This document shows, one piece after another, positions 3,621-56,943 of a DNA stretch of 64,000 bases. Position numbers and translations under genes: made by a program. The notes beneath the pieces are model-generated. The model searched no databases. It worked only from the letters and a program-made list of their open reading frames with translations, and had not been told where the DNA came from. Source of the DNA: Tetradesmus obliquus (Eukaryota > Chlorophyta > Chlorophyceae > Sphaeropleales > Scenedesmaceae); the NCBI GenBank assembly GCA_030272155.1, contig CP126203.1, positions 2,108,001 through 2,172,000 of the forward strand, read 5' to 3'. Within the stretch, counting starts at the first letter, position 1, and the number at the start of each line of letters is the position of its first letter.

Positions 3621-4078
3621 ATTTGCTGCTGTGGTGGAGCGGATGACCTGTTCATGGCTGCCTCACGCTTGTTGCATGCACACACACATGTGCAGCGGTA
3701 AGTTGGTGACACAGCTGCATAACAGCAGTGGGTTCTGCTGACAATTCCTTACAGATGTAGGTGCTGCATGTGCAGCTCGCGCAGGTGCAGCCCTTTGTGC
3801 ACAACTGAAGACGGCACATCATGTGAGAGGTACACTCAGACCAACTGTTCCAGCCACATGGGGATCAATTAACACCTTTGATATGCTAGTCTTCTTCTTC
3901 TACAAGGCAAAGCTGGCCATTTATGACTCGAGATGTTATGTAACTGCTCTGTAGTTCAAACCCCAGATCCAGATGGCGGATGCTTCCCCTCCTGGAGTCC
4001 CCCCCGCAGATGTGACCGGTTTGTTTCTCGCAGCACGTTTTGTTTCGGTTGCGTTGCTAATGATCGGTGGTGGAGATC
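3621..4078. other. Spacer and putative promoter upstream of the 4.1-kb gene
   Basis: Non-repetitive sequence between the satellite and the first gene. It must hold the promoter and 5' UTR of the gene starting near 4079. An ATG at 3973 opens a short plausible frame, but no splice in a matching phase joins it to the downstream exon, so it is not used here. No TATA box or other element could be assigned with confidence. Confidence 0.35.
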
Positions 4079-27064: not shown

Positions 27065-27281
27065 TCAGACCACGATTGAGTCGCCTGAAACGGCCTTTGC
27101 AGCACCTGATGCACCGCTGCCACTACCAGCAAGGCGTTCTGCGGCAACAGCAACCCTCACAGGCACTGCATGTGGTGCACATGACGGACCCAAACCAACT
27201 GCATTGAGATATCTCGCCATGTAGCAACGCACCGACTCAACAGCTTCAATTGCTGCCAATGCAGGAACATGGTGCAACATT
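27065..27281 (-). CDS. Possible small antisense protein or exon, hypothetical
   Basis: An open frame of 71 codons runs from an ATG at 27281 to a TGA at 27065, overlapping the first codons of collagen-like gene C on the other strand. It starts MLHHVPALAAIEAVES and ends GDSIVV. Its codon use looks protein-like (few low-complexity runs), but no domain is recognised and no splice partner was found. It may be a chance frame within the shared upstream region. Confidence 0.2.
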
Positions 27282-27704
27282 TTAACATCAGTCTGCTGCA
27301 GGCCATTGCTTGCGTACTGCTGGCGACGCACAGCATTGGTGCTGCTGGCGCCAACAGTAAAGCTGCAGCTTCAGCAGCAGCTGGCAGCGGAAGCATCACA
27401 GTGGCTGGACACAAGCTCGAGCTGCAGGGAATAGCAGCGGAGGCCATGTTTGCTTCAACCATCAACACGCAGCTGTCCTGCAAGTGGGCAGGCTTCTACT
27501 GGCATGGGAATTACTGCAGCCCCTGTCCTGCAAACTATTACTGGGAGGATGCTGCGGGCGCCTGTGCACCACGTGAGACCACATGTTTTGTAACAAGTTA
27601 TTGACGTTTCAACATCCACATAACATGTCACAGTGCATGGGCATTGCAGTGACGGTGCCTGCGGAGCGCTTTAACTGCTCACACTCAGCCATCAGCACCC
27701 ACCA

Positions 27705-27751
<47 letters not shown>

Positions 27752-28125
27752 TGCAGGTCAAGCCGTTGAGTGCCTTGAGCAATATGGCTGCAAGCCCCTC
27801 AACAATGGCAAAAAGGAACTAACCGAATGCGCCATAGAGCCGGAGCCGCCCAGCTGCTGCCCCAATGCAACAGGGCCTCCTGGCCCGCAAGGCATCCAAG
27901 GTACGGCAGTTGCTGCATCAACCTGAACACCAGCAGCTGCAGCCCCTGCACTGCCTGGTGCTGGCAGCTCACCACATACATCGCAACAGCAGCTTGTGCG
28001 TCACTACCGGTCATTTCGCAGCATGCTTCCACGCACGTAGCTGTTGAGCTCTCGGCTGACCTGCCTTTGCTGTGCGCTGCTGTGTGGTGCTGCTGCGCAG
28101 GCCCTCAAGGTGTGACACATGCACT

Positions 28126-28173
<48 letters not shown>

Positions 28174-28871
28174 ACAGCAGCATAGTACAAGCAGTGGCTT
28201 GCTTGACGCTGATCGCACAACTGTTGTTGGGGGCTAGGCATCAGTACGCGCCGGCTGCTGCAAGCCTTCTGCCGCAGCATCCGGATGCATTGTGTGCCAA
28301 GCAAGTAGCTTGCTGTAGCTTGTTGGTCATGTAGGGCCAGCTCTGTGTGGTTATGCTGCAGCTGCTGCATGTTATCCTAACAGCAGTACAGGCTGTCATT
28401 ATAACGGGCGATACAACCTGACCGCAAGTGCAGTAGGTTTGTGGGACTTTGTCGTAGAGGCCGAGCAGCAGGAATTACACCATGCACATGCTCTGCCCAA
28501 CCCAACAAACCCTCATGTGCTCTGCTGCTGCTGTTGCTGTGCTGTGCAGGAGTTGGGGGCTTGGCAGGTGAGAGTCGCACTGCCTTGATGCAGAACCAGC
28601 GGAAGCAAAGCTGCTGAGTGTGCGCGTGTGTCCTTTGGTACACATGCAGCGCCTGCCACAGCCATATGTGCATGCAGCTGCTCCCATCCAATGCACCTGC
28701 CACCCGCTGATTTCCTGTGGCGATGTGCTTTTGTTTGTTTGTGTTTACATGCACAGGAGCGCCAGGAAGGAACGGCACTGGTGGTGTTGACGGTAGTGAT
28801 GGCCGCAATGGGCTGAGGGGCCCAGCCGGCCCCACAGGGCCTTCCGGTGAGCGCCAGCTGGCAGCCTGTGG

Positions 28872-28910
<39 letters not shown>

Positions 28911-31639: not shown

Positions 31640-31691
<52 letters not shown>

Positions 31692-33202: not shown

Positions 33203-33237
<35 letters not shown>

Positions 33238-34255
33238 GTGTTTTTTTGTTGGTCGTTGTAACTATACATAGGGCCACGAGGCGTGGGAGGTGAGGTGCTG
33301 CAGAACCTTGCACATATCTTGCAGCAGTTCTTGACTGGCATTCCACATGCTGCCTGATTCCTCATCTGGACACTCTCATGCTGGCAGCTGACACACCAAA
33401 CGCACCCAACATATACATGCGGCGGAATGCTGCTGGCCAGCCTGCAAAGTAATAAAAAAAAGCGCAAACAGCCTAGATATCCTGCACAGCATGTAACCAG
33501 CAGAGCCACCTGGTGATCATCATCATCATGTTACCATTTAAGCCATAGCAACGTCGCCATCGGCCCCGCGCCCCACAGGAGCGGCTGAATGAACAGCCAC
33601 CTGGTGATGTGAGTTGGCTCACATGCAGTCACGTGATGTGAAGTTGTGATCTGCTGGGCTGCTTGTCATTCTGAACATTGATGCGTGGTGGCTGCAGGCC
33701 TCTTCATGATGCAGCATAGCAGTACTAGTGTGCTGCCGCGCTACATCATTGTGGTGCATGACAGCACCTGCAAGCCATTGTTGCTCATGTGTATGTGCTT
33801 ACTTCCGCTTGTCTTTCCTGTCGTCTGCACGATTCCTGTTTGCAGCTATGCAAGCCTGCACGAATGTGGAGTTCCGGCCAGTGAATCCAACCGCCCCCAA
33901 CCTCTGGGTAATCAGCTCCGACGGGACCTTTCCCTCCATCGGTGATACATCCGAGGACCTGTGGTTTGATTGCAGCAGCACTGGCGCACCAGCCGCGCAA
34001 GTGTATGGCGGGATGTGCTACATGGTGTGTCAATGCAACAACCCAAATAGCAACGGCTGCGTGGCGGAGGGCCCGGCAAACATACGCAACTTCTACGTGA
34101 GGCAGTTTGTGAACGTCGCGCCAGCCAACCCTGCCTCAGTCTTGCCTTCAGCCGAAAACAAGGGGTTATATTGCAGTTCGACGCTGACCACGCAGCTGAC
34201 GCAATTAGACATAACCTGCTTTTTGAGGGCCACTGTGTCTTGCTGTCTGCCGTAG
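27269..34255 (+). CDS. Secreted collagen-like protein C
   Basis: Exons 27269-27572, 27757-27900, 28101-28109, 28550-28567, 28757-28846, 29406-29468, 29850-29876, 30354-30422, 30497-30523, 30589-30624, 30690-30725, 31133-31222, 31708-31716, 32060-32077, 32480-32506, 32890-32907, 33272-33289 and 33846-34255 join in frame to about 470 residues. The N-terminus is hydrophobic (signal peptide, ending near SIGAAG). A Cys motif follows (CKWAGFYWHGNYCSPC, then ACAPR), then a CCPNATGPPGPQG transition into Gly-X-Y repeats with interruptions of the form GQxxPG. The C-terminal domain contains WFDC, YGGMCYMVCQC and a terminal CCLP. Every collagen exon begins and ends inside a Gly codon (phase 1). Some acceptors in the 30.4-30.8 kb tandem block are a choice among alternatives. 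An extracellular structural role is inferred. Confidence 0.8.
29476..29577 (+). repeat. Dispersed repeat flanked by GAAT tetranucleotides, copy 1
   Basis: GAATGAATAAATG is followed by AGCTACGCGTGGTGTGTT, then weaker homology ending CGATGAGGAAACCTCATGCGCC. The same order recurs at 55357-55490 in collagen-like gene E, and the inverted GTGAACACACCACGCGTAGC with (TCAT)n recurs at 56333 and 56656. It is likely a small mobile or amplified element. Confidence 0.7.
29603..29714 (+). repeat. 58-bp direct repeat, two copies, intronic
   Basis: Two copies of a unit starting TGTCAGCTGTTGTCTGCG and ending in the AAGCAAGAT...GTACAGAG stretch lie head to tail (about 29603 and 29661) in an intron of gene C. 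Related TTTGCCTGTTG(G)CTGTTGTTTGG stretches recur to about 29920, around the 27-nt exon at 29850. Confidence 0.7.
30423..30826 (+). repeat. Four tandem 101-bp intron-plus-exon units in collagen-like gene C
   Basis: Units 30423-30523, 30524-30624, 30625-30725 and 30726-30826 are each exactly 101 bp. Each consists of a short AT-rich intron (GTGATT...GTTATAACATTGTTA) and a collagen exon ending GGCCTGCAAG or similar. The first three keep an AG acceptor and an in-frame Gly-X-Y exon. The fourth has lost a base and no longer encodes Gly-X-Y, so it is probably a dead exon. The parent exon is 30354-30422. Confidence 0.85.
33518..33564 (+). repeat. 47-bp dispersed repeat, copy 2
   Basis: Identical over 47 bp to 16246-16292. 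Here it lies in the last intron of collagen-like gene C. The flanks differ between copies. Confidence 0.8.
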
Positions 34256-35605: not shown

Positions 35606-38600
35606 TCAAGTGAACCTTAGGCAGCAAGCCGCCCTGCCCCGCACGGTGCAGCCTCCTGCAGTAGACCCAAAGCTTTCCGTGACCATGTAGCTGCATTGAA
35701 TTGCCTTGGCAACGGAGGGCGGCGCGTCTTGTGGCATGACCCCCGTCAGCTGCTGTAAGGTGATCTTTTGGTAATATGCCTCGTCTGTGCAATCCAAGTA
35801 GCACTCGCCTCCCATGGTATAGTACTTGCCTTCCAACGACACGATAAAAGTAGAGGTATCTCTGCATTTCAAGCAGATGCATGATTGCGGCGGGCAGTAC
35901 GGTGAGGTTTGAGCACATCCTGTGTGCACATGCTTCGCCTCACAGCAGCTGACCCTAGCGTCACATGCACTGCTGTGTAGCCTACATGTTGTTGCTGCTG
36001 CTGCTGCTATGATCACGTGGAGTGTGTCTAATCCAACACAGCGCAGATACATCCGTCGTGCGCTTCTGAGCAACCTTGAAGTATGATAAAGTTGACGGCA
36101 GCAGGCTGACTCGCGGCCCGTGGTCTGTCCTGTCACATGTAACAACATGGTCTGTCCTGTCACATGTAACAACATGGTCTGTCCTGTCACATGTAACAAC
36201 ATGGTCTGTCCTGTCACATGTAACAACATGGTCTGTCCTGTCACATGTAACAACATGCCCTTCTGGCATGTCTCAAACTTTCTGACATGGTGACTTGACC
36301 CACACTTGGCTAATAAGCGTCAGCACCTGTGGGTCTGCATGTAAGAGCACACAGCCAGTTACAAGCTTTGACGGGCCATCACTGCACATTGTCATTCCAT
36401 CAGCAGTGGCAGCCATCTAGCAGCATCATACAACAACTGCTCTGCAACAGAGCCAGAGCAGCCAGCTGAACATTTTCACCTTCCTACCTGCAGTCGAAAC
36501 CTGCCAGAACAGTTGTCGCTGGAGGACCACTCCCGCCAATGCCACCAGCAGAAGAGGTGCTGCCCGCTGTGAATGTTGCCAGGGTCGCCGTAGCGAATTG
36601 AACGTCAGCACACTGTATGCCTGCAGGACAGCGGCAACAGTTTTGTGTCTAAAAGCAAATCCAGATTGGCAAACTCAGCGCATCTGGCAACGGTACAGAT
36701 GCAGTACAGGGTGAGTGCACATCACTGCTCTGCAAACTGCTGAATGCATGCAGCTGCTGACCATGTAGCTGGCTGAGCAGGCAGCAGGCATGGGCAGCAT
36801 ACAGATCTCTAGCTGCTCTGCAAACTGCGGCTAGATGCACACAGATGCTGACCACATCGTTGACTCTGCAGGCAGCAGGCATAGGCAGCTAACAGATCTA
36901 GCTGCTCTGCAAACTGCTGCTGAATGCACACAGATGCTGACCACATTGCTTACTCAGTAGGCATGGCAGCAAATAGATCTCTAGCTTGAGCATGCAGCTG
37001 CTGGCGGCATGCAAGGTGCTGGATGGAAGCGCCAGCAGCAGCTCAAGCTGCGGCATTGTTGGAAATGCTGACTCAGTTGATGATGAGCTGAACCCTCTGT
37101 GAAGCCGCACCGCAGTGTGAGACAGCTGTTGCGCGGCCACTGCTGCCTCGGGTGGCCCCTGTGACACATATGATGCACATGTGCTGCTGCGAAATTCTCT
37201 CTACAGCTTGATGGCTCTGCAACTTGTTCAAGTACTGTCAAAACGTGTTGAAAAATGGCTCGCTGCTACAATGCAGCCACTAGCAGGCCTTGAATGACAT
37301 ACACCAAGCTCCATATACCTGGGCCTCCAGGACCTGCAGTCACGACAGTGACAGCATTTGCAAGCACACAACAAGTCAGCCACAAATCATTTGCAGCAGC
37401 AATCTAGCACATTGTCAAAACACAACAGTAACTGCGAGCATGCCCAGTACGCAGTGAGGATAAACATGCGAAGCTGCGGACAGTGATGCAACAGCAGCAG
37501 TGAAGTCCAAATGCCTGGTTGCTGGCAACAACTTGCGTTTTTCACAATTGTGCGGCGCACAGCAGCAAGCATGTCAAAAGGCTGTGTAGCTGCGCAGCTC
37601 ACAGTGGCAGCAACATCATGTTGATGGACATGCGTCTGCTCTCTCACCTGGAGGTCCGTTCAGGCCTGTGCGCACATGCCCGTACGTGTTATGTAGCGTG
37701 CAGCAAGCAGCGGAGCAAGCAAGCATGGACAGGTAAGACGTTGATGCTGTTTGCTTGATGTATGTGCTTGAACATGTGCTTGAGATTCTGCTTTGGCCTG
37801 CAGGTGAACACTGTTCTTGAAGCCAGACTCAATCTGGAGCGTGCAGTGTGGGAGGCCCTGTCAGTCCTCATGATCCCTGCAGCACAAAACGTGCTTACCA
37901 GATCATGATTGCCTTAGGTGTGTTACAATATCCCCGTCTTGACGTAACATAACAACAGACACGCCAGCAATGAGTGAGGTTGGGCCAGAAGCGGGCAGGC
38001 TACGCGTGTGCCGCGCACACAGCAGCCGCCAGAGCAGTGACAGCCCAGCATTCTCAGCTGAGCAGCACACAGCACACATCCCAACCCACTCCCCACCTCA
38101 CTCAAATTGCTGCACCAGGCAGGCTTGCGATCTTCTCCTGCATCACACGCGTGACAGCACACTTCTGTGCTGCCGACATGCCGACATACAGCAGCCACGT
38201 GTCAGACTGCCAGTCACCTTGTATGCGAATGAACAGCGGATGCACCCCGCATTGAAAGGCCCACGTGGCGCCGCCTCGCCGCAGCGAGTGCCCACCATAT
38301 GCGGAGGGGTCCAGGCCACACGCCTTAATCAAATCCTTCAGACCCACCAGCAGACGAGAGTATGTCAGGGGCACATACACACCACCCTGCACATGACCAA
38401 ACGCCGGTGCATCCCCATCCGCAGGATGCAACGTGAACAGCTTCTGCAGCCAGGCGTATGGGTCCAACACGTGTCCCTTCACCCCTTGAATGGTGATGAC
38501 CTGCTGCCGCTGCCGAAACTGGTTGGTCTTTGACATGGTAACTGTAATATGTACACAGTAAGCCGCATGGTCAAACACAAAGTTTTTGCGCCGCAGCACT

Positions 38601-44600: not shown

Positions 44601-47600
44601 ACGAGCAAGGCGCGTGTTGGTGCAAGCAGCAGAAAGAACTCGCAGACGTGCCACATGGCCACTGCCTGCAAGGGCCAGAACACAGCCCTCACACACTCAA
44701 TTGTAGCTGGCATGACTGATGACGATCTGGCCACGCTCTGCAGCGTCCTGCTGTATGAACAGCAGGCGCATGCATGCACACGCTCTCTTTCACCGTCTGC
44801 TGCTGCAAAACATACATCACCATGGCAATCCTGCGGGTGCCTCAGCACTGCAGCTAAAGACCATCTGCCTTGCAGCCGCTGTACAGCATGCTCCGTGTCA
44901 CATGTGGGTGCACATTTGTTACGTTACGTTACATTACTCCATTCAACCAAGGAGCGGGAACCCCAAACAGGAGCCAACAAGAGGCTCGTTTGTGTTGCAC
45001 ACTGCACATCATTGCAGCTTCTTGCAAGTGCCTGCTGATCATTGACCGGTTGCATCAGCAAGGCAGGCAGCAAGCAACAGGCTGTACAAGACAGCATACC
45101 TCCTGGACCAGGGGGGCCTATAGGGCCCACACCGGGAGGCCCGGGGGGACCTGTTGCACCTGTGACAACTGCACAGCAGAGCAGCAACAGCAGATACAGC
45201 AGCTAATGTTTATGTGTTGGCCTTGACGTTTGTGGCAGGCAGCAACCACACATGTGTGCAAGTCATGCGCGGGGTGTGGGGCGCATGTAAATGGACACTG
45301 GACAGGCCGAGAGCAACAGTCCCCATCCACAAGAAATCATGGATTTAAGAGTGAACTTCCCCTCCAAAACTGTAACGGATACCATCAGCAAAGATCTGTC
45401 TGCCATGCAGCAGACGTGCATTGCAAAGAGACACAGGCAGTGCTGCTGCTCGTGGGAAGCTGGCTATATGCAATATTCAAAGCAGTGGCTGGCAGGATCT
45501 ATAGTATATCATCAGCAGCTTGCATTGCACTGATTCACAGCTTGCAGGAACTTGTATGATGTCTTGCAGGAGCACCCCCAACAGCGCTAGGTTTAAACTT
45601 GTGCAGACATTGCTACGCAAGAAGGCTAGCTGGATGGGCAGGGGGCATGGCAGCAGCAGCAGCACTCACCAATGACCGCTCCAGGAATGCCTGCAACCAG
45701 CAGATCATTGATGGCACATTTGGTCAAACATAGTTGACCAATATGCCAGATGGTCAACGAGTGGAGGCACGGCTAGAAAAGAGATGATGGACTGTGCGGC
45801 AGCTGCTCCTCGAGTGCTGATTCAAGCAGTCTGCTGCTGTTCGTGCATTAGTATGTGCTAAATGCACATCATGTGAAGCGCGCCTGAGACTGCGGAACAG
45901 CTCTACAGCAACTGCAGCTGCCAGTTTAAACTTTGGTCGAAATATGTCGCCGCCCAGACACTGCCAGCAAAAGGAGGTGGCCAGCATTGGATGCCAACAA
46001 TGTATCTGCAAGTCAGCACTGCTGACAGCAGTAAGGTGGCTTACCCAGCGGGCCTTGGGGGCCTGGGGGACCTGGTGCAGCAGCAACAGCAGCAGCGTCA
46101 GCAGCAGCGTCGTCAGCAGCAGTACAATAGCACAATTTTGGTTGTGAAACCAATGCTTGCAGACTTGTTACAACTATACTGATTTATACAGGCTTTCCTG
46201 CAGACCAAAGCCACTGCCATTGTGTGTGTGCTGCGACGCATTGATTAATGCTGTTTCTCGCCAGCGCAAGGCAGCTGGCGCCTTTGCATTGCTGCTCGGC
46301 ACATGTCACAACATTGAACATATCAGCTGCTGCATGCATGAGCTACTGCTGAAACCATGCAGGGCTGCCGAATAGTTTGTGAAAGCTGCAGAAGTCTTGC
46401 GCAGCATGCAACACAATGACTTTGCTGCTACATATGCCAGACAGACGTGATTGCTGTGTACAGCTGAGCATTCAAGTTGCTTAAACCTAGTCCTGCCAAG
46501 TGTATGAGCACATGCACAGCAATTGTACAACTTGCAGGGCTGTCACAAAGTGTGACGCACACGCGCAAGGCCAGCGCTTTACCAGAGCAGCAGCAGTTGC
46601 ACATACCTGTGGGCCCTACCAGGAGACTGGGGTCCACACCATCAGGCCCTCTAGGACCTGCAGCACAGACGTGGCAACACATCGCCCTCTCTAATACGGC
46701 TGTGAGTGCATCTGACTTTACAGACACACCTGCTGCAGCCGCTGCTCAGTTAACATAACATAGCATGCTGTGGTTGTCCTGTGTGTTGAAAACCGGTTTC
46801 ATCCATGGCATGGATGGGAATCTCAACTTCGATGTACATTTGCAGCAGTGCTAGCAGGAGTACAGCAGCTAGCAGATTGTGCAACCACGCGTCCCTACAC
46901 TGACCCTTCTCTGCACTGACAGGCAAGCTCTGTGTTTACATAGGCATGAATGGAATCTTCAACTTGGGCGCATGAATGCACCAAGTGCCAGCAACATATG
47001 GCAACAAGCAGAATGTGCTACCACGCGCGCCTACACCAACCTGCTGGCCCCGGTGCTCCATTTGCGCCTGGCTTGCCATCTGCCCCTTTTGCACCTTGCA
47101 GCCCTGCAGCACAGCAGCAAAACAGAAAGCACATGACATGGCCACATGCCATGAGTGGTGCCAGGTGTCCGCAAGGTTAAATAAATATTGGAATCTTTGA
47201 AACTATGTATCCTGCAGCACACATCGGCAACATCATGCAGCCGACTAGTGCATGGTGCATACGCAGGTTGAGCATGTGCTGAGTCAGGCGTCAGGACCCT
47301 GCATGTCCTGAGTCAGGCGTCAGGACCCTGCACAAGCACCCCCTCATGATACACCCGCATGCATGTCTGCTGCCCTGTCTGCCTTTCCTGTCACACCAAT
47401 GCACCACAGCAAGAGGAGCTGCAGCAGCAGGCAGACCACAGGCCCAGAGTACGCTGTCGCGCTGCAGGCTGTGTTACATAACATGCCACACATGTCACTT
47501 CCTGTGTTACAAATGCAAAACCGCACCTGCAGGGCCTTGCGGGCCGCGCGGACCATCTGTGCCATCTTTTCCGTCTTTCCCATCCACTCCGTCTTTGCCG

Positions 47601-48239
47601 GCGTAACCAGCAGCACCTGCATCACAGCAACACCTTGCTGTGAAACTTTAAACACCTTTATGTTGCAGCACATTGGTGAATGCAGGTACCCCTTGTCTGC
47701 TGACAAAGCACGCAAGCAGTTGAGAAAATGTGATTGTGCATGTGAGCGGCAAGGGATAGCGAAATGGGCATTGCTGCGTTGCCTCTCCTGCCAAGTGTGC
47801 ATTGGAACTACAGCTGCAAGACGTTGCTGGTGTGTCTGGGCTGCAGTCACAGCAGTATCCTGTTGCAGAGATGTGCGGCAGGTCCCGGCCTACAACACAC
47901 ATGTTGTTGTTGGTGATGGCAGGTGACTCACCATCAGGCCCCGCAACGCCTGCAGCAAAACCCCACAACGGCCGGCCAGTGTTGCAGTGTCCATTATGGT
48001 ATACAGCACGGCGCGATTGTTTGCAGTATTAGAAGTGTAAAGCACGTGCTGCAATAGTGTGCATGTACTTGGCAAGCCGCCTGGATTTTGCTGTAATGCA
48101 ATGCCAGCTGCCAATTGATGCACTGTATGCAGCCAACAGAAGCATGGCCATCAATTGAACACAAGCGGAGCTGCAGCGCACCTGGCGGGCCAGGCTTTCC
48201 TAAAGGTCAAAAGCGTCGGAGCGCCATAGTTGATACAGT

Positions 48240-48278
<39 letters not shown>

Positions 48279-48420
48279 GCAGCGGCGGCAGCATTAGCAG
48301 CAGAAGCATATGGTGATTTGAAGGCTTACATGTTGTCAGGACAGCTCAGCCAGCCGGTTGGATGCTGAGCATGGATGCATGCATGGATCAGTCATGATGC
48401 ACAATTCTGAATCAGACGAC

Positions 48421-48462
<42 letters not shown>

Positions 48463-48811
48463 TGCTGCTGTTGGTGAATGCACTTCATTGCCAGCGGCTC
48501 GGGTAATGAAAAGCAGGCAACTGCTACCTTGTGTTCAAAAGCTGAGACGGTCAGTGCAGCACATGCTGTCCGGCATGTACAACAAAACATCTCATTTAGA
48601 TAGCATCAACCCATGTGAGTCAAGGTTGCAGCTGCTAGCTGCACTGCATCTCACCTGCAGGGCCTGCCACTCCAGGGCTGCACCAGTCGGCTGGGCATGT
48701 GCTCTCTGGCATGTTGTTGCTGCTGCTGCGGCCTTTCTTGCTGCTGCTTGTGTGGTTCTTTTTGCTGGTTGCTGGTGAGCAGCCGGCCACAGGACCTGTC
48801 CTCAGCAAACA

Positions 48812-48847
<36 letters not shown>

Positions 48848-49399
48848 CTTCCAGAGAGCTTGTTGCTGCGAAGCAGTGTGCTGCCACGGTGTGCGCCAGC
48901 AACACAATGGATGCTGCTTTGATCCATGATCTTGGCCCAGCAATGCACATTGTGTCCATCAAGCTGTTGACAACACAATCAGCTTCCTCTGTGCTGCTGA
49001 TTGGCGCAAAAACTTGCTTGCAGCATCTCCTGGTGAAGTGTCGCTGTCCTATGCAGTGCACACAATGCAACAGCACAAAACAATTGGCATGCCATTAAGC
49101 TCTGCGATGCAACAGCACAGCAATGTAACAGGCACAGCCAGCATGTGTGAACCTTAACCCTCACGTGGGGCACATGCGCCGTCAACAAAGTACAAGTCGG
49201 TTGGGCATGCGCTGCAGCAGTCGCCATGCCAGTGGAAGCCTCCACGCTTGCACACGCCTTGGTCATCTATGGTGGTTGCAAACTTGTGCACAGCTGTCAG
49301 TGAAACTGGCTTGTCAGTAGATTTGCTGCTGCTGCTGATGGGTGCGGCCAGCAGCGTGGCAGCTCCCAGCAGCACCAGTAGCGCCACCTGGCGATGCAT
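35606..49399 (-). CDS. Secreted collagen-like protein D, intron holds a retrotransposon
   Basis: Read on the minus strand, exons 49399-49165, 48795-48655, 48199-48182, 47949-47932, 47616-47527, 47094-47041, 46657-46607, 46071-46045, 45690-45670, 45159-45100, 44550-44542 (9 nt), 44004-43987, 43690-43664, 37665-37648, 37333-37319, 36620-36488 and 35861-35606 join in frame to about 396 residues. A signal peptide (MHRQVALLVLLGAATLLAA) is followed by the Cys motif CKRGGFHWHGDCCSAC and ACAPR, interrupted Gly-X-Y triplets (for example GKDGVDGKDGKDGTDG), and the C-terminal domain (GFDCR, MGGECYLDCTD, AACCLRFT). Introns inside the collagen part are all phase 1; the last intron is phase 2, splitting the Arg codon after GFDC. 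The intron 43663-37666 contains the 5.6-kb retroelement in the same orientation. Transcription must traverse it if the gene is active. Confidence 0.78.
36121..36255. repeat. 27-bp minisatellite, 5 copies, intron of gene D
   Basis: Five nearly perfect copies of a 27-bp unit starting TGGTCTGTCCTGTCACATG lie in the last intron of gene D. The period is a multiple of three, so one frame on each strand stays open across the array; those frames are not considered genes. Confidence 0.95.
37857..37901 (+). repeat. 45-bp direct repeat, left copy (element 3' side)
   Basis: Begins CCTGTCAGTCCTCATGATCC and ends AACGTGCTTACCAG; identical to 43432-43476. It probably represents one of the split direct repeats of the retroelement. 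No additional matching B-repeat was recognised beside it. Confidence 0.9.
38102..39118 (-). CDS. Retroelement tyrosine recombinase
   Basis: 338-codon frame whose C-terminal half carries the tyrosine-recombinase residues: Arg156 (FGFLRKG), the H-x-x-R box at 277-280 (GGHSLRRGGAT), Trp303 (GDWQSD) in the third-box position, and Tyr311 (WLLYVG) as nucleophile. The N-terminal part (about 15-110) resembles a SAM-like core-binding region. The first codon of the frame is GTG and the first internal ATG lies about 49 codons in, so the protein is more likely made by frameshift from the upstream RT/RNase H frame, which it overlaps by 62 nt. Its role would be to integrate the circular cDNA copy. Confidence 0.85.
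   Translation of the reverse strand: MAATQPRLALHQEALGYLKHDLADSTLGQYQQSLKYVVRVLLLLGLLPMLWAPQELVVCWVVAFFARSASYKSIVNYLKAWKYFLGVHGWDVSVWQGWQLLPRLLRGVKRVKGDVAKPKLPITPALLLQFVRALPLGGPALALWAAILVGFFGFLRKGHLCVDGVGLGPVSMAVLRRKNFVFDHAAYCVHITVTMSKTNQFRQRQQVITIQGVKGHVLDPYAWLQKLFTLHPADGDAPAFGHVQGGVYVPLTYSRLLVGLKDLIKACGLDPSAYGGHSLRRGGATWAFQCGVHPLFIRIQGDWQSDTWLLYVGMSAAQKCAVTRVMQEKIASLPGAAI
39057..41609 (-). CDS. Retroelement reverse transcriptase-RNase H polyprotein
   Basis: About 850 codons in the same frame as the gag-like frame, separated from it only by a TAG at 41612-41610. The N-terminal ~200 residues include a hydrophobic stretch (GSALAALVCCALLAVVAAA) and six 13-residue repeats of the TPAVSGAVGEICV type. 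The RT domain (about 355-600) shows GAVPKKNGGVRIIHDCSYPR, the palm-A Asp in AGIDIQEYY and the catalytic pair in AVMDDF (V-M-D-D in place of the usual Y-x-D-D). RNase H residues are visible in QTDAS, WEMYAVV, RTDNSQ and MADALS. No protease or integrase domain is recognised. Confidence 0.9.
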   Translation of the reverse strand, partial: GCGPSVEEFQGSWGGGMLAGSALAALVCCALLAVVAAANAATADVTPAVSGYVKDFGMPGTASRAADARCSQVVAAVFLDAASSAPGSSCADFGRCGNVPASCTACITPAVSGAVGESCVTPAVSGAVGEICVTPAASGAVGETRVTPAVSGAVGEILVAPAGSGAVGEMCVVPAVSGTMGEIGAPSAGSGATPAGSGVVRGVASVVGGEGSVTDTCKDAGAATTFVQALWGVQPVQKVWDISWAGWGLPDCDASVKRITDPACVTSAVNMSGWWRRLLPHQQQFVDQMRSRWPLSVHVWQPVLGGDHDWSFLSAVLTEGVSIVHPQNVPRVSVAQNYASFNECAAACGAVFASELERGLITAAPEWFASQWVHPLGAVPKKNGGVRIIHDCSYPRGASLNDAQSYLYLPWASVDSILQEVTPSCWMAGIDIQEYYRNFPVNPVCWPLQCYRDAEGRLMVDSRLQFGHRMAPEVAGRFSAALQRRLMSEFDASVTAVMDDFTIISPKQDKCLAAWRGSCSRLEGLGFKLSQGPGKTEPPAHVKVSLGLEIDSVSMTVGLCPVKLAKLRDVCQQCLASKFVTRKQLEKLLGFLMWVSRVVYAGRTFCHNLQVTMHRLRKPSHRVRVSAWLRSELLWWLNVAPSLNGKHQILPAMPVKWAQFQTDASLTGAGGEPCVGIWLQGAYNSLSYTQLCSCFADVPEKTAHISVWEMYAVVVCVRLYGDYMAGRYWRVRTDNSQVVAWFMKGDAPPHLVSLWLKEMATLSVQLRFRIGAKHIPGAVNCMADALSRCAWSVVHTLLQRWVVSQSENWLLVPDAVAPPLTYRGGVLPAGSGGDTTEAGAASGGAGLFEA
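41055..41288 (-). repeat. 39-bp coding minisatellite (13-residue repeats) in the pol frame
   Basis: Six near-complete copies of a 39-bp unit encode TPAVSGAVGE(S/I)CV variants at about residues 103-180 of the RT frame. All copies preserve the frame; substitutions are mostly in the last three residues of each unit. Confidence 0.9.
41610..43139 (-). CDS. Retroelement gag-like protein
   Basis: About 509 residues from an ATG in good context (GCCATGG, minus strand) to the TAG at 41612-41610. The frame is open upstream to 43310, with an alternative ATG at 43250. Near the N-terminus a coiled region carries three 7-residue repeats (QQQAVFG, QQQAMFG, RQQAVME). The C-terminus is a Cys/His nucleocapsid-like zinc region (CLNFWLHGSCNRPEC followed by CCMLCG and QCRRR). 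The middle (RWVTSFKAAGYL to HQYALEAAKAAV) looks like a capsid-type helical domain. Assignment as gag rests on position and the zinc region. Confidence 0.75.
   Translation of the reverse strand: MANGIAVLKLFAEHGVMVPDDKLSLMATALDELTAPGGASGAAAPTLETMQEYSCSPEGQAELELLRKEISDIKVLVGQQQAVFGQQQAMFGRQQAVMERLLSTQSFFPPASSSAAAAAAPGAEAATGPDFLPTDTTNGNIAKSMPEIEEQAKGLLATGLPASGVSAGGLCDLLQGHELGAGVVCGDGGVSGVGVQHLAAGGRGVADSGAAAAFACSSACRDGVRSQKAFYGVEHFAGSGLERAGHVESVLRVEQGSGRLIAEQSLGSLPARTSVCSEAELLRKLPNFVCWEDAEQRWVTSFKAAGYLQGSELVAYETVFRPRMRQAAAEYMTGSSSTWLLFLLYDRDVRLKVFNENSKLMFGSTQSVFSWGTLDGVIDYRLLVRHQYALEAAKAAVSSKQPSPAAPPRQAPQLQMSGIKDMLQQLLGQPQQPQRFRRGASGGGTAGLMQEIEQLLPAGVGRNDVCLNFWLHGSCNRPECKFASKGHCCMLCGAANHGGSQCRRRGGAF
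43432..43476 (+). repeat. 45-bp direct repeat, right copy (element 5' side)
   Basis: Identical to 37857-37901. It lies about 290 bp upstream of the preferred gag start on the minus strand and probably marks the 5' end of the element. Confidence 0.9.
47279..47332. repeat. 25-bp direct repeat, two copies
   Basis: CTGAGTCAGGCGTCAGGACC...TGCA occurs at 47279-47303 and 47308-47332 inside an intron of gene D. Confidence 0.85.
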
Positions 49400-50419
49400 C
49401 CTGCAAAGGGTCATGTCATGGCGTTGAGCAGCTGCACAGCAGCATCCTCTCACGTCCAAACCATTTTGAAACCTAGAATGAATCACATAAGTGTCAATCG
49501 TATCACTTATCACCTTGTTGGGCCAATGCTCGTTGAAGGGCTTCTGGTGGTTGGCAATAGTTTTGCCACACAGGCGGACTGCCCTTGATATCTGGCGGGT
49601 CACGATGCCGCACTACGTCTGAATTTAATGTTGAGGTGTGATTGGACCTCTACGTTCAGCACAGCACTGGATCGTCCTTTGCGACCGGATCACACAAGGA
49701 AACCAGCATGTCACGTAGGTACCAAAGGCACAAAAGTTGAAGACGTAAAAGTCATATACCAGAATTTTTACAGTTTATATGCTCGGGCCGATGTTCAAGA
49801 ATTTCGACTCTCCAGACTGACGGTTGAGTCGCACATGTTGTTGGAGTAACCGCGACAGTGGCAGCGTGCTTGCTGTGAAACAAAACAAATATCTGTCTAG
49901 CTGTAACCTGCAAGCGTTGATGTGCAGCTACAGCAGACAGCAGCGAAGCCACAGCCTTGGTTGAGGCACTTGGGCAGTCCTCCGCTCGGCCGGCTGGACC
50001 ACTATCTGGGCTGAAAATTTTCAAACAGGTTACTTTAGGCCGCTTTCAACACTCTAGCCTGACGTCACCGCAGCATGAACCACCTTTCAGCACCATCGGA
50101 CACCAGCAGAGCGTACGCGAGCTTCAGCGGTTGTACTGCAGACGTACACATTCCAGCACATATCAGCATTGATTGGTGACAAGTGTGGTACTGAAATTGC
50201 ATCGTGGCTGTGCTTGACCCCATGAGCAGAGCTGCTCATGCCTGCCGCACTGCAACAGCAGCACAGTTGCTGCTGCAGCTGGCATTGCTGCTGCGTATCC
50301 TTCTGCTCATGTCTGCCTGGCATTGCTCAGCAGAAACTCAATTTATGATGGATTCTTGCTGATGCAGGGTTGAGTGAGGGAAGCTGGTGGGGTGCACACC
50401 AGTCAACAGAAGTGTCATC
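49400..50419. promoter_or_regulatory. Shared divergent promoter region of genes D and E
   Basis: The 1,020 bp between the start codons of gene D (-, ATG at 49399) and gene E (+, ATG at 50420) must hold both promoters and 5' UTRs. No other gene is seen. An AT-rich stretch occurs near 49745-49790. No specific factor-binding site could be named. Confidence 0.5.
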
Positions 50420-53400
50420 ATGCGCGCCTGGGTCATCGCGCTGGCAGCGCTGCTGCTTGCAGGAACATGCAGCCGCACCCCTGCTACAGCACACGCAGTC
50501 AACCTCGACGCCTGGAGCGTCGCTGCAGAAACCACACCAGCAGCAGCGCAGCCAGCTGATACTCTGGACATCAATGCTGCATGGCCCACAGAAGCAGTAG
50601 CCACAGTGCCTGAGCCACGCAGCATTCAAATTGCTTGGCCGTCAAGGGGAAGCCAGCCGCCAGATGCAGCTCAGATTGACAGCCCCCGCGAATGCAAGAA
50701 GTTGGGCATGCAATGGCATGATGCCTTCTGCAGCCCCTGCGCGTTTGACTTCTACTATGACAATGCTGCAGCGCGCTGCATGCCTCGTGAGTTGTGCTGT
50801 TGTCATTGGAGCAGCACAGCGCGAGCCAGGGCCTGCAGATATATGATCAACCTCTTCTTTGAAACAGCACATGCTTTGTGTTGCATCCGTGCTCAGAAAG
50901 CTGCCTAGCCTGCTGCAGCTACAGCTACAGCTCACTTGAATTGAGCTGCACCACGCAGTTGACTACAGAGGGTATGTTGCACTGCTGTGTGATGAGGCCC
51001 TCCCAGTGCCAGGACCCCGCTTTTCTGTGTGCGCTTGCAGCCGCTGTGCTGCTCTGTAGTTCACAGCACGCTCAGCCTGTGACGCCAACGAGCTTACAAC
51101 ACATGCGGCTATGCTGTTGCGTCCGCAGGGCCCGTGGCAGCACTCACTGCCGCTGCTGGCAAGAAGGGAAAGGCAGTGCACGTTCCCCAGCCCCCGCCAC
51201 CACCACCACCCCTCAACTGCAGCTGCACAGTCCCTGGGCCAACCGGACCGCCAGGGCCCCAAGGAATTGCAGGCGAGGCTGTGCATGCGCATGCTGCTTG
51301 CTGATGCCTTAATGCATTGCCCAAACAGCATCTCGTGGAAAGTCCTGAGCATGCCGCTTTCGGCAGCAATGCCAACAGCAGCAGAAGGGGGTGGGGTGCA
51401 GCAGCATGCAGCTGGGAGCAGTGAGCTTGGGTGCAGTGTGCAGGACTGTGCCTTGCTGGCTAGGTGCCAGCAAGGCACAGCCTGCATCAACATCATCGTC
51501 ATAAGCATCATCATCATCAGCAGCAGCAGCAGCAGCAAGGAAGCATATCCTTGCCCCACATCCTCCAGCACCTTACGTGATGTGGTTGTGGCAAATGCAC
51601 TTGTGTACATCAGCGACAGATGTGCGTGTAGTGGTTCAGGCAAAACAATAGGATGCAAGGAGAGGCCTGCCTTACAACTTCTGTACCTTCGTGCTGCACC
51701 ATATGCAGGTCCTGCCGGCAAGCGAGGTGTTGATGGTCCTGATGGGGTCAATGGCACCAATGGCAAGGATGGGAAAGATGGCATGCCAGGCCCAACAGGT
51801 CCCACAGGTGCAGACGCCAGAACATGAACAGGCTGCTCATTGCCTCGGCCCGTCGGCCCATAAACTTTAGGGTTTTGGGTTCAGGTTCACTACTAGATAG
51901 TTTAGGATTTAGGGTTTAGGTTTATTATACTACTCCCTGGGCTCCCCAAAGTCCTTCAGCGTTGACCTACACCTATACCTACGGCTGCACAAGCTATGCA
52001 CCTGCTGCTTCAACGCCCGTGCTACAGATGCAGCCGCAGCATGTCTGCTCCATCAAAAGCCAATGCATAATGGCTTGCTGGATCCACTGCTGTTGCTGCT
52101 GCTGCTGCCTCTGCAGGCCCACGTGGGTTGCCAGGGCCGAATGGTCACGACGGTCCTGACGGTTTGATGGGGCCAACTGGTGGGTGTGCAGTGAACAGTT
52201 CTGCAGGTGTAGCGCTTCTTGAGGTTGGCAGCGCACTGGGTTGCATTGTATGGACATTACAGCTAACAGGTGATGCCAATACTCTGCAGTGGATCTCAGC
52301 TCATCTTGTTGCAAATCCGCTTACATACAGCTGGCCTTGTCAGTCCAAACAAAGTATTGACAGCACAGCGCCACCAGTAAGCATACTCTTCGTGTGCAGT
52401 CATCGGTGCTGTATGGATGACTTTAGTTGGGTGTTCGACGTGCTGTCTGCATGTGCTGCCTGTTGTGCATGTCTTGTTTGCAGGCCCTACTGGTGCTCCT
52501 GGGGCAGACACCTTTGGCACCACAGGGCCGCAAGGTATGGCTGTGCGTTGCCTACTGCAGCCATGTGCATGTGCGTCAGCTGCTGCAGCATTGCAAATTC
52601 CCTCTCTGCTTGTGCTTTTTTTACCAAAGTTTCACTTGACGCTAGCAGCAGTGTCTTTGGGCTCGGACCTGTGCTTCCAGAACCCTGTGTGTGGTGCTTG
52701 CTTCACTGTTATTAACAGTAGTACCCCACTTTGCAAGTCAGAGGGGGGAGAACAGGTTCTGCAGTTGCTTACAGAGCTGAGCATGTCACGCGCTGGGCTG
52801 ACTGTTCACACAGTTATGAATCATATCTATCATTTTCGTGTATATCTGTGTATCTATCCACACACAGTATGAGTCGTATCTCTATTCATCCATCCATCGC
52901 TATCTTTACAATACACGTACTGCTTTGTTGCTGCAGGCCGCCCTGGCCCTGCCGGCCTTCCAGGTGGGAGCTGTGAGGCAGGCTGAGGAGCTGTGCAAGA
53001 CCTTGCACTGTAGCACTGTTTAGCAGCAGCAGCAGCATTGGTTGCAGTGGCAGCAAAAGATAAAATACTGTTGCGGCTGCAACTAGGCCCTCTGCACATG
53101 CAGCGGGACCACAGCTGCTTGGAATGCTGCAGCAACCAGCTTCAGTTGGCAGGCTCCTGCTGCATATCTCGAGCGTGGCATGCACAGCAGATTGAGCAAT
53201 CAGTACGATATGCTAGTGTTCTTTGCCTGGGCACTGCTGCTGCTGCTACTGCAGCTTACCAACGTGCTGCCGCTAGCACTGCTGCTTCTACTGTTGCTGC
53301 TCACCCCTCCAATACTGCCCCTACCACTGCTGCTGCTGCTGCTGCCACCTCCCGTCAGGCCCTGATGGCCAGCCAGGCGCAGCAGTGCCCGGCCCTGCTG

Positions 53401-56400
53401 GGCCGCCTGGTGAGCTCTGGCTGGCATTACTCACGCTGCTTGGAACGACAGCAAACATGCACTCATGGCATAGCATTGGTAGCTGCATTGGTAGCATGCT
53501 ACGATACGTTACGTTGCTTGCAACAACAGCAACCATGCAGCCATGCCACCGGATCTGTTGCACCATGCATCAGCAGCCTCATACAGCGACACGCAGCATC
53601 ATGCATACGCAGTCCTCAGCGGCATGCGTAGTACGCAGGCTGCAGCATCCGAAGACATGAGCATGCGGATGGAATTGCAGCATAACACAGCGGCATGCAG
53701 CACCGCTCTGCCAAGCATGCGTTGCGCTGCTGACAGCACTTCCAGTGCGCTCGCAGCTATGATCAGATCATGCAGGCCTACAACAATCAGTTTGCTGCTG
53801 AGTGAGCAGCACGTGGGTGGTGAACACATGGAGCTGCACAGCTGTACGTTACACACTCCTCACGTCTGACGTAGTGTGTATGCACGCTGCTGTCGATGTC
53901 ATTTGCTGCTTTCATGACGCTGCAGGCCCCGGCATCACTGGACCGCAAGGTGGGGCAGCTCAGCAGATCTTGGAATGTATAGTTTGTTTGCGCCTGGTCA
54001 GCTGCCACTGACTAGAAAACAAAAAAATCGTACAAAGGATAGATATGTTTTGCAACCCCGCCTGAGCAAGAACACAATAAGCTTGTTGTAGGAAGTTCTG
54101 CCTGATGCATAGCAATGCCAGCGTATATCAGTTAAAGTGGCGCAAAAGTGGCGCACCTGGTGCTCTGCTGAATCCAGGCCCTACCTGACCTTTTGACCCC
54201 AACGATTTCTGCTGTCCTTCTGCTTGCAGGTCCCCAAGGAGGGCGAGGTGGGGCACAGCAGCAGTGCTGGACATTTTCAGCCAGCCATCAAGCATTCTGG
54301 GCATTGCAGCCTCATTGCAGCCGCAAGATGATAAAGACACCAGCAGCGTTCCAGCTGCTGGTGTAGGTTTTCAGTTCTTGCGCACGTGTGATGACTAAGC
54401 GGCTGTGGCGATGGCACAAGAGCCTGCTGCTGCCAGCTCCCTCGCACCCAACAGCCGCGGCTCATCATCATCATTATCATGTTACCACTTATATGAAACC
54501 ATTTTTATCATCATCATCGTCATATCATCATGTTACCATTGAAGCAGCCGCAGCTCGTACATTGGATGCCAGCAAGCACTGACTTGGCAAGGCAGCAAGG
54601 CAGTGTATGCTGTCGAGGTTGTTGGCAGACTGCACAATTGCTGGATTTTGTTTTGTGAGCTGCCTTGGGGTGGAGTTGATGTGTGGACACCATGCTGCTT
54701 TTGCACCTCTGCAGGCTTCCCAGGACAGGATGGGCCGCCGGGGAATCAAGGGCCAGCAGGTAACAGTTCACGCAGCAGCAGCAGCAGCACTGGGTGCACC
54801 TTGCTAGTTGCACTTCAATGACTTCGCCGCAGAGCAGGGCCGCAGCAGCCGCCAGCGCAGTTGAGTTGCCGCTTTCAAACAGCAACAAAAAACCGCACAT
54901 GCCGGGCATGCAGGTTCTCAGCTCCCTTTTCTGAAAACTAAACTACGATTGCACCCTTCTGGGTGTGTTGGTTTGACATCAAGGGCTAGACCTGCCATGC
55001 ATGGCACCTAAAGCAGTGCTAGGCGAACAGCAGGCGGGGAATGTGGAGCCAAACCAGGCCGCATACTTGGCGCATGCTGCTGCCTTATCTTTTCAGAGTG
55101 CCTAAGCTCTTCCAGCAACGCACACCATACCATCAGTCAAGCTCAAGCTCGCCTTTCCATGCAACTGCACATACTACAGCGCATTGCGAGAATGGAATAC
55201 GTCAACATGCGACCTGTTCTCCTCAACCCCCAAGCACTGACAGCACCGCTGCTGGTCTGTTGCTGTTGTCTATCGGTTGCTGCTGCGCAGGGCCTGACGG
55301 AGCTGACGGCGCCCGCGGCCCAAATGGTAAGCCTTGCCGCAGCTGCAGCCAAGCCTGAATGAATGAATAAATGAATGAATGAATGAATGAATGAATGAAT
55401 GAATAGCTACGCGTGGTGTGTTTTTACTCGCCACCTGCGGAGGGCGTTGTGTGTGACGATGAGGATACCCCATGCGCCTTCACACCTCCTACCATTCCAA
55501 GCCTGATACACTAATGCCACACACGCATATGACTTGTAAAGTGTCATGCATGCTGCTGGTTACATGTGCGTACATGCTAGCAGGCTGGCATCAGCAACAC
55601 AAGCACTGGCTGTTATGTCGAAACATGAACAAGCGCATGCAATGCGCATTGCGCAGTTGTGGCTGAGTATAGCAGCAAGCTTCTGCATTGGTGGCAGGAG
55701 TCATGTGTGAACAAACATCTGTTACCATGTGTCCGCACCTGTCTGCAGGGAAGTTTTGCAATAACATCAGGGTGATTGACATATACACGAGCGCTGCCCC
55801 TTTGGATACGCTGGATCCAACTGACGGCGTGGGTTACGCCAACGCGGATGCGTTTGACTGCCGCTTGCCGTTTCTTACCAAACTGCCGGGCCCTGCTGCC
55901 ACCTTGGGAGGAGAGTGCTGGCTCGAGTGCACGTGAGTGCAACTAGGCTTTCGTATGATAGCGTGCTGGTTGTATTGATGCAGTGTGATACAACAGGTTG
56001 ATTTTGAGGAATTGGTGGAGGTGTGAACTGAGTTGGAGGCACCTGCCGCTGCAACCTGACAAGCAGTGCAAGGCCCAGATGCATGCATAATGTGGGCTGT
56101 CAAAGGTTGAATGGTGGTTTGAGTTAACTTGGAAGCATTTGCTGTTGTGGCAAGGAGTGCAAGGCCCCAAGTGCTTGCACAATGCTCAGCGTGGGTGCAG
56201 CATGCAGCGAACGATCTCTGCCGAAGCATCTACATGCATACAATGATCTCAGCAATGCGTTTTCTGCGCCTACAGGTGCCCTGGCGGCGCTGGCAGCTGC
56301 TCAGGCGACCCTTACCGGAGCATCTACATGCAGTGAACACACCACGCGTAGCTCATTCATTCATTCATGCATTCATGCATTCATTCATTCATGCATTCAT

Positions 56401-56943
56401 TCATGCATTCATTCATGCATTCATTCATGCATTCATTCATGCATGCATTCATTCATTTATGCATTCATGCATGCATTCATTCATTCATTCATTCATTCAT
56501 TCATTCATTCATTCATTCATTCATTCATTCATTCATTCATTCATTTATTCATTCATTCATTCATGCAATGATCCCGGCAATGCGTTTTCTGCGCCTGCAG
56601 GTGCCCTGGTGGCGGCTGCTCCAGCGACCCCTACCGCAGCATCTACATGCAGTGAACACACCACCCGTAGCTCATTCATTCATTCATTCATTCATTCATT
56701 CATTCATTCATGCAATGATCCCGGCAATGCGTTTTCTGCGCCTACAGGTGCCCTGGTGCCCCTGTCGGCTGCTCAGGCGACCCTTACCGCAGCATCTACA
56801 TCCGTGCATTGTCCAGTATGGCCCCTGCCACGCCTTATACTGGTGGCGACGGTGCATTCCAGTGCAGGTGGCACGTTGTGCAGCAGCTGGCTGGGTACCA
56901 GTGCACGGTGAATGCGCGCCTGACGTGCTGCGTGGACCCATGA
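50420..56943 (+). CDS. Secreted collagen-like protein E
   Basis: Exons 50420-50786, 51129-51272, 51709-51807, 52117-52179, 52484-52534, 52937-52963, 53359-53409, 53926-53949, 54230-54247, 54715-54759, 55291-55326, 55749-55932 and 56748-56943 join in frame to 434 residues. A signal peptide (MRAWVIALAALLLAGTCS) is followed by a longer spacer than in C or D, the Cys motif CKKLGMQWHDAFCSPC, a Pro-rich hinge and Gly-X-Y repeats (for example GVDGPDGVNGTNGKDG). The C-terminal domain has AFDCR, LGGECWLECTCPG, FQCRWH and a terminal LTCCVDP. Exon 2 is 144 nt, the same as in gene C. Its donor is GC (AG|GCGAGG), required by the phase of exon 3. Two decoy copies of the last exon's 5' end lie just upstream of it. 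Confidence 0.82.
51866..51926. repeat. Degenerate telomere-like TTTAGGG stretch
   Basis: About 60 bp in an intron of gene E contains TTTAGGGTTTTGGGTTCAGG and TTTAGGATTTAGGGTTTAGG, close to the plant-type TTTAGGG telomere repeat. A shorter GGGTTTAGGGTTTA occurs at about 57105. It may be an interstitial telomeric remnant or simple sequence. Confidence 0.5.
55357..55490 (+). repeat. Dispersed repeat flanked by GAAT tetranucleotides, copy 2
   Basis: (GAAT)n with one AAAT variant is followed by AGCTACGCGTGGTGTGTTT and a tail ending CGATGAGGATACCCCATGCGCC. Order and sequence match 29476-29577 in gene C. The GAAT tract is longer here. It lies in an intron of gene E. Confidence 0.75.
56221..56747 (+). 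repeat. Decoy copies of the last-exon 5' end of gene E with (TCAT)n tracts
   Basis: The unit holds (TCAT)n, then CAATGATC...GCAATGCGTTTTCTGCGCC(T/G), an AG acceptor, and the first ~55 nt of the last exon (starting GTGCCCTGG). It recurs with acceptors ending at 56275, about 56600 and 56747; a further remnant starts the block near 56221. In the first two copies the exon copy reaches ATGCAGTGA, a stop, and then the GAACACACCAC-GTAGC element. Only the third copy continues into the real C-terminal exon. Confidence 0.85.

What the first reader, a model, noticed from the sequence alone, without database searches (positions are those of the whole stretch)
27269..56943. Cluster of three paralogous algal collagen-like genes with a shared three-part architecture
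Genes C, D and E each encode a signal peptide, an N-terminal Cys motif (C-K-x-x-G-x-x-W-H then C-S-x-C and A/R-C-x-P-R), an interrupted Gly-X-Y region and a homologous C-terminal Cys-rich domain. Collagen-type proteins with dedicated terminal domains are poorly described in green algae. N- and C-domains could act in secretion and trimer registration, as propeptides do in animal collagens; that part is inference. Arrangement as convergent plus divergent pairs points to local duplication.
Basis: partly seen in the sequence, partly recalled or inferred. Interest (0 to 1): 0.88.

Follow-up and report, generated by a model that had tools for sequence, protein, structure and literature searches.

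The report
Green-alga collagen genes with matching ends
A freshwater green alga carries a cluster of three related genes for collagen-like, probably secreted proteins that share undescribed cysteine-rich end pieces, and two more genes elsewhere in its genome share one of those ends, so this plant-lineage organism seems to have a small collagen family of its own.

Summary
At 27269-56943 three multi-exon genes (C +, D -, E +) each encode a hydrophobic leader, the stated N-terminal Cys motif, an interrupted Gly-X-Y rod and a C-terminal domain with 8-10 cysteines and a CC near its end. The window lies in a 104.7 Mb genome of Tetradesmus obliquus or a close relative. Annotated T. obliquus proteins reproduce most exon joins of C and E. 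Four exons of C and one of E lack that support; D has no outside support.

Beyond the finding: two further collagen genes (contig 15; contig 13, about 130 kb before the window) carry a related C-domain. For the contig-15 gene, a protein from contigs of at most 1745 nt matches my splice model over 409 of 409 residues. Neither terminal domain matched Pfam or a PDB sequence. Most introns split a Gly codon after its first base, so exons can be duplicated or skipped in frame.

Trimer registration by the ends is plausible but unshown. The one usable C-domain model (pLDDT 68.7, of another family member) is all-beta with only weak fold matches. Prior art: collagen-like proteins predicted in Volvox.

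The parts
27269..27572 (+). Gene C exon 1: leader peptide and W-H Cys motif (CKWAGFYWH..CSPC..CAPR)
   Evidence: 42 of 101 residues aligned to P0001, which starts later
27757..27900 (+). Gene C exon 2: rest of N-domain (5 Cys) and first Gly-X-Y triplets
   Evidence: 48 of 48 residues aligned to P0001
28101..33289 (+). Gene C Gly-X-Y exons: 28101-28109, 28550-28567, 28757-28846, 29406-29468, 29850-29876 (uncertain), 30354-30422, 30467-30523, 30589-30624 and 30690-30725 (these three uncertain), 31133-31222, 31708-31716, 32060-32077, 32480-32506, 32890-32907, 33272-33289
   Evidence: the four uncertain exons are absent, or in effect absent, from P0001
30369..30830 (+). Tandem array of a 101-bp unit carrying a Gly-X-Y exon (4.6 copies, 76% match)
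33846..34255 (+). Gene C single-exon C-domain, 10 Cys, ends CCLP-stop
   Evidence: 92 of 136 residues aligned to P0001, 63 identical
49165..49399 (-). Gene D exon 1: leader peptide and W-H Cys motif
48655..48795 (-). Gene D exon 2: rest of N-domain (CPADWC before Gly-X-Y)
37319..48199 (-). Gene D Gly-X-Y exons: 48182-48199, 47932-47949, 47527-47616, 47041-47103, 46607-46657, 46045-46071, 45670-45690, 45100-45159, 44542-44550, 43987-44004, 43664-43690, 37648-37665, 37319-37333
   Evidence: no outside protein seen for D
36488..36620 (-). Gene D C-domain exon a (ends after FDC, phase-2 intron)
35606..35861 (-). Gene D C-domain exon b, ends CCLRFT-stop; 8 Cys in the whole domain
50420..50786 (+). 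Gene E exon 1: leader peptide and W-H Cys motif
   Evidence: 122 of 122 residues identical to P0002
51129..51272 (+). Gene E exon 2: rest of N-domain (Pro-rich, CSC) and first triplets; GC donor
   Evidence: 47 of 48 identical to P0002
51709..55326 (+). Gene E Gly-X-Y exons: 51709-51807, 52117-52179, 52484-52534, 52937-52963, 53359-53409, 53926-53949, 54230-54247, 54715-54759 (uncertain), 55291-55326
   Evidence: 8 of 9 present in P0002
55749..55932 (+). Gene E C-domain exon a
   Evidence: 56 of 61 identical to P0002
56748..56943 (+). Gene E C-domain exon b, ends CCVDP-stop; 10 Cys in the whole domain
   Evidence: 59 of 65 identical to P0002
56276..56655 (+). Two extra upstream copies of the start of gene E's last exon (56276-56336 and 56601-56655), each behind an AG acceptor and running into an early stop: possible alternative last exons with a cut C-domain
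   Evidence: read by eye; repeats; matches
49400..50419 (.). Head-to-head interval between the start codons of D and E

Best explanation
C, D and E are real, duplicated genes for extracellular collagen-like proteins of a Scenedesmaceae green alga. Shown by sequence: hydrophobic leader; Cys-rich N-domain ending in a short Cys motif just before the rod; 45-58 complete Gly-X-Y triplets with 3-5 interruptions; a C-domain of 126-136 aa with a conserved Cys pattern that is also found on two further collagen genes of the genome. Inferred: three chains meet through the C-domain, which folds as a disulfide-bonded beta unit and nucleates and registers the triple helix from the C-end; the Cys motif next to the rod locks the N-end; the trimer is built into the wall or the matrix between cells. 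Because rod exon borders split a Gly codon after its first base, the exons are symmetric, so rod length can change by exon duplication or skipping without loss of frame.
For: Gene models and phases (43 of 45 introns phase 1, the other 2 phase 2 inside the C-domain; 44 of 45 GT-AG, 1 GC-AG; junctions were chosen by eye, so the uniform phase is independent evidence only where other proteins agree). Such agreement: P0002 aligns over 12 of 13 exons of E, 407 of 434 residues identical; P0001 aligns over 12 of 18 exons of C in full or all but two residues, including exons of 9 and 18 nt, and over exons 1 and 18 in part; P0003 aligns over 409 of 409 residues of the contig-15 gene B1 without gap, 392 identical, and comes from contigs no longer than 1745 nt, whereas that gene spans 1250075-1255328 with 10 introns, so those contigs are most likely transcript-derived. 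Homology of the ends. Pfam Collagen. No second membrane-like stretch (19-residue hydropathy maximum beyond residue 40 is 0.95 or less in C, D and E). Cys numbers in the C-domains are even: 10, 8, 10, 8, 8 (C, D, E, B1, B2), and the members with 8 lack the same CxC...GC pair. Tandem exon array in C.
Against: No transcript or protein evidence for C, D or E themselves; P0001 and P0002 are annotated proteins whose RNA support I could not see. P0001 loses the second half of the C-domain. No trimer was predicted or measured; the structure model of C's own C-domain failed (mean pLDDT 42.4). The link of C's C-domain to B1 and B2 is weak on its own (22 and 231 of 1000 shuffles reach the score), as is E-B1 (62 of 1000), and C's domain found nothing but itself in the genome at E 10. 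The order of rod exon lengths is only modestly conserved (363 of 20000 shuffles reach the C-D value, 1669 if the uncertain C exons are left out, 4095 for D-E, 18287 for C-E). Wall location is not tested.
Confidence: 0.5

Rival explanations
1. Stalk-and-head recognition proteins, working like collectins and ficolins: the rod is a trimeric stalk and the C-domain a ligand-binding, possibly lectin-like head for bacteria, sugars or neighbouring cells, not a structural assembly domain.
Confidence: 0.25
2. The Gly-X-Y rod was taken from bacteria or algal viruses and joined to host ends; the proteins work as surface adhesins like bacterial Scl or Lcl.
For: Rod composition is bacterial-like (comparison from recall): Pro in X over Y, many Asp, Ala, Gln, Thr in Y; NCBIfam SclB, Lcl and SclA models match the rods of P0001-P0004, far below their cut-offs; 11 bacterial loci match P0002 between residues 136 and 306 only.
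Against: 10-17 introns in the four complete gene models; the ends found no relative in the scans that ran: viral contigs with the N-domain alignment and with P0003, bacterial contigs with P0002. The C-domains of C, D and E were not scanned against viral contigs. Similar rods can arise by convergence.
Confidence: 0.12
3. Some or all copies are decaying: C with its tandem exon array and alternative C-end, D with a retroelement in an intron, E with partial copies of its last exon.
For: Array and extra exons, element, shortened C-domain in P0001.
Against: The three spliced frames are open over 18, 17 and 13 exons; E agrees with P0002 at 407 of 419 aligned residues.
Confidence: 0.1

Closest known systems
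OEZ85_000676 (named Collagen-like protein in UniRef) and OEZ85_000678 (hypothetical protein) of Tetradesmus obliquus
   Same: Orthologues or alleles of C and E; both records list a longest contig of 3,900,477 bases and one tag number lies between them
   Different: P0001 lacks four of my rod exons and diverges in the C-domain; P0002 lacks one rod exon; neither record describes the ends
Predicted collagen IV- and XIII-like proteins of Volvox carteri (PMC10923841, passages seen)
   Same: Green-algal predicted proteins, some with Gly-X-Y rhythm
   Different: Not compared in sequence here; the passages seen describe no shared terminal domains; a few carry RGD, absent from the rods of C, D, E and B1
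Animal collagen IV and fibrillar collagens
   Same: Interrupted rod (IV), Cys-rich C-terminal assembly domain (IV NC1: PMC5395295, passages seen), exons of whole triplets (recalled), head-to-head gene order (IV); works-like comparison only
   Different: No Pfam match to any of their C-terminal domains at E 0.1; Pro less frequent in Y than in X
Bacterial collagen-like adhesins Scl1, Scl2, Lcl
   Same: Rod composition
   Different: 36-70.5 bits against cut-offs of 325-500 (run on P0001-P0004); introns; other ends
Collectins, ficolins, H-type lectins
   Same: Short collagen stalk plus C-terminal head (collectins, recalled); six-stranded beta model (H-type, weak)
   Different: No sequence match

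Membership tests
Collagen-like (triple-helix repeat) proteins, PF01391 | Tandem Gly-X-Y repeat over the curated cut-off | tested here: met
   69.3, 55.3 and 68 bits against 27.2
Collagen-like (triple-helix repeat) proteins, PF01391 | Actual triple helix | not testable with these tools
   needs circular dichroism or protease resistance of the protein
Collagen-like (triple-helix repeat) proteins, PF01391 | Secretion | tested here: inconclusive
   hydrophobic N-terminus, best 12-residue hydropathy mean 2.5-2.7; no signal-peptide program at hand
Fibrillar collagen | COLF1 C-propeptide and long uninterrupted rod | tested here: not met
   only Collagen matched at E 0.1; longest unbroken runs 25-29 triplets
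Collagen IV | NC1 (C4) domain | tested here: not met
   no Pfam match at E 0.1, nor for the C-domains at E 10
Collectin or ficolin | C-type lectin or fibrinogen-like head | tested here: not met
   no Pfam match, sequence level only
H-type lectin | H_lectin sequence profile PF09458 | tested here: not met
   0 matches in the own genome at E 10; not listed for the five C-domains
H-type lectin | Six-stranded antiparallel sandwich forming trimers | tested here: inconclusive
Pherophorins of volvocine algae | Pherophorin domain | tested here: not met
   no Pfam match
Bacterial Scl/Lcl adhesins | Family score over the curated cut-off | tested here: not met
   36-70.5 bits against 325-500 (run on P0001-P0004, not on C, D, E themselves)

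The most novel reading that the evidence does not exclude
Scenedesmaceae evolved a collagen family of their own: a Cys-rich beta C-domain unlike known animal, bacterial or viral collagen ends acts as trimer-forming (or lectin-like) head, an N-terminal Cys domain locks the other end, and rod length is tuned by shuffling of symmetric split-Gly exons. That would be an independent invention of the N-lock, rod, C-register design in the plant lineage, perhaps serving the wall of the coenobium.
Probability: 0.3. Interest if true: 0.82.

Novelty: new variant of a known kind. Interest (0 to 1): 0.57.

Why it matters
Collagens with dedicated assembly domains are usually told as an animal story. A family of at least five genes in a walled green alga, with its own conserved ends and frame-safe exons, would be an independent test of what a collagen needs in order to assemble. 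It also names candidate structural or recognition proteins for the scenedesmacean wall, in which glycine is reported to be among the most abundant amino acids (PMC9372998, passages seen), and short collagens with native terminal domains from a culturable alga.

Tried and rejected
Chance Gly-X-Y runs: rejected. The Pfam Collagen search of the genome gave 21 matches: 3 are C, D and E, 1 is B1; of the other 17, Gly-X-Y runs were printed for 11 loci: eight look like simple repeats, L017 is a Gln-rich repeat, L018 had no run and L024 a short run in a long frame. L005, L010, L011, L013, L014 and L015 were not inspected; five of these overlap inspected ones, L005 does not. B2 was missed by that search, so five genes is a lower bound. 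Weak E C-domain matches on C14 (E 0.29) and C12 (E 1.0) were fetched and read: no collagen gene seen there. Matches of D's C-domain on C7, C17 and C11 (E 0.13-1.9) and rod matches on C6 (E 2.9 and 5.5) were not followed. Exon-length order as proof of paralogy: only modest for C-D and nil for the other pairs. Structure of C's own C-domain: too poor to use, so not searched. Fold of B2's C-domain: no reliable match in PDB or viral models; lectin resemblance kept as a lead only. No literature on these genes: searches list no paper that, by title and abstract start, is about collagens of Tetradesmus, Scenedesmus or Sphaeropleales, 12 of 36 papers were listed, 15 of 202; most papers of subscription journals are not held.
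Full report
WHERE IT IS. The window is G000:C13:2108001-2172000 of a 104,662,953-base genome in 17 contigs, given without a name. Proteins of Tetradesmus obliquus match the genes here closely (122 of 122 residues in exon 1 of E), so the organism is T. obliquus or a very close relative (Chlorophyceae, Sphaeropleales, Scenedesmaceae).

THE OBSERVATION. I modelled the three genes exon by exon. C (27269-34255, +) gives 480 aa, D (49399-35606, -) 399 aa, E (50420-56943, +) 434 aa. Each begins with a hydrophobic stretch and shows no second one of membrane strength. Pfam sees only Collagen at E 0.1. The number of Gly-X-Y runs is far above simulation: 16 against a mean of 0.29, maximum 2 in 100.

HOW GOOD ARE THE SPLICE MODELS. 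Junctions were chosen by eye so as to keep the Gly rhythm, so the uniform phase (43 of 45 introns phase 1) is not by itself evidence. Independent evidence is the comparison. OEZ85_000678 (P0002) aligns over 12 of 13 exons of E and lacks one, 54715-54759. OEZ85_000676 (P0001) aligns over 12 of 18 exons of C in full or all but two residues, including those of 9 and 18 nt, and over exons 1 and 18 in part; it lacks 29850-29876, 30467-30523, 30589-30624 and in effect 30690-30725 (2 of 12 residues), starts later, and differs in the C-domain from CYMV onward. Introns of 44, 65 and 65 nt in the repeat stretch of C, against 184-559 elsewhere in C, add doubt there. For D no outside sequence was found or looked for.

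THE FAMILY IS LARGER. The W-H N-domain was found only in C, D and E (3 matches each). The C-domain is not so confined. A collagen gene on contig 15 (B1, 1250075-1255328, -; 409 aa, 11 exons) ends in a related domain, and a search with it found another at C13:1976392-1976765 (B2, -), about 130 kb before the window, again after Gly-X-Y exons. Shuffle tests link B1 to B2 and B1 to D (0 of 1000, also with cysteines fixed), D to B2 (1 of 1000; 13 with cysteines fixed) and E to B2 (3; 16), and C, D and E to one another; C-B1, C-B2 and E-B1 are not significant alone (22, 231 and 62 of 1000). B1 has no W-H motif; the N-end of B2 was not found. P0003 (source lgn, 7 contigs, the longest 1745 nt) aligns to B1 over all 409 residues with 392 identical and no gap, which the 5.3 kb gene with ten introns could hardly give except as a transcript; so this member is very likely expressed. 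Scenedesmus sp. NREL 46B-D3 has a B1 relative (P0004, 300 residues aligned, 194 identical).

ANATOMY. The rods have 58, 45 and 46 complete triplets with 5, 3 and 3 interruptions; the longest unbroken runs are 29, 26 and 25. Pro is in X more than in Y. Lys in Y is 0, 1 and 0. No RGD. Rod exons with phase-1 borders explain how C can carry a 101-bp exon array and how annotated relatives can lack single exons without losing frame. C-domains hold 10, 8, 10, 8 and 8 cysteines (C, D, E, B1, B2); the members with 8 lack the same CxC...GC pair, as expected if these two are bonded to each other (inference).

ORIGIN. The N-domain alignment and P0003 found nothing in viral contigs; the C-domains of C, D and E were not scanned there. 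One bacterial scan, with P0002, gave 11 loci that match between query residues 136 and 306 only, that is the rod and its edges. Among about 5.8 billion proteins, three C-terminal queries (C, E, B1) gave 1, 1 and 2 proteins at E 1: Tetradesmus, Scenedesmus and the lgn cluster. The search needs shared exact words, so more distant algae may have been missed.

MECHANISM. Most likely: secreted trimers held by C-domain assembly and Cys bonds at both rod ends, placed in the wall or between cells of the coenobium (0.5). Shown: architecture, homology, likely expression of one relative. Inferred: trimer, register, place. The main rival is a stalk-and-head recognition protein (0.25).

KNOWN WORK. In Volvox ten potential proteins related to collagens IV and XIII are mentioned, some with Gly-X-Y rhythm (PMC10923841, passages seen). 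Gly-X-Y repeats without collagen IV are noted in choanoflagellates and amoebozoa (PMC5395295, passages seen). Searches for green-algal, Scenedesmus, Sphaeropleales and Tetradesmus collagens listed no paper on this family in the held library (titles and abstract starts seen). UniRef already names one T. obliquus protein Collagen-like protein, so the existence of that gene is on record; the shared ends, the five-gene family and the exon logic are not described in anything I saw.

Noticed in passing
38102-43379 (-): A retroelement with a gag-like frame, a reverse transcriptase/RNase H frame (Pfam RVT_1 and RT_RNaseH below cut-off) and a frame that looks, from recall, like a tyrosine recombinase (DIRS-like) lies inside the 5998-nt intron of gene D. 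By eye, a stretch of some 44 nt recurs near both ends.
   Followed up: partly
56276-56336 and 56601-56655 (+): Two partial copies of gene E's last exon, with TCAT microsatellites between copies, each behind an acceptor and with an early stop: possible alternative last exons that cut the C-domain.
   Followed up: partly
435-3622: Tandem array of a 282-bp unit, 11.3 copies, 99% match.
   Followed up: no
34686-34860 (+): Open frame with a Cys-containing stretch (NSCGWGEGLLKYKVVSGGRVTICTCKP) just downstream of gene C, not explained.
   Followed up: no
59903-60454 (-): Ankyrin-repeat frame downstream of gene E (Pfam Ank_2 E 7.1e-16).
   Followed up: no
L036/L037 (C15:1252374-1253120) and L049 (C13:1977099-1977615): B1 and B2 share an Asn-X-Ser/Thr-rich segment between rod and C-domain and, before it, a segment with two close cysteines and a helix-like pattern.
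   Followed up: partly
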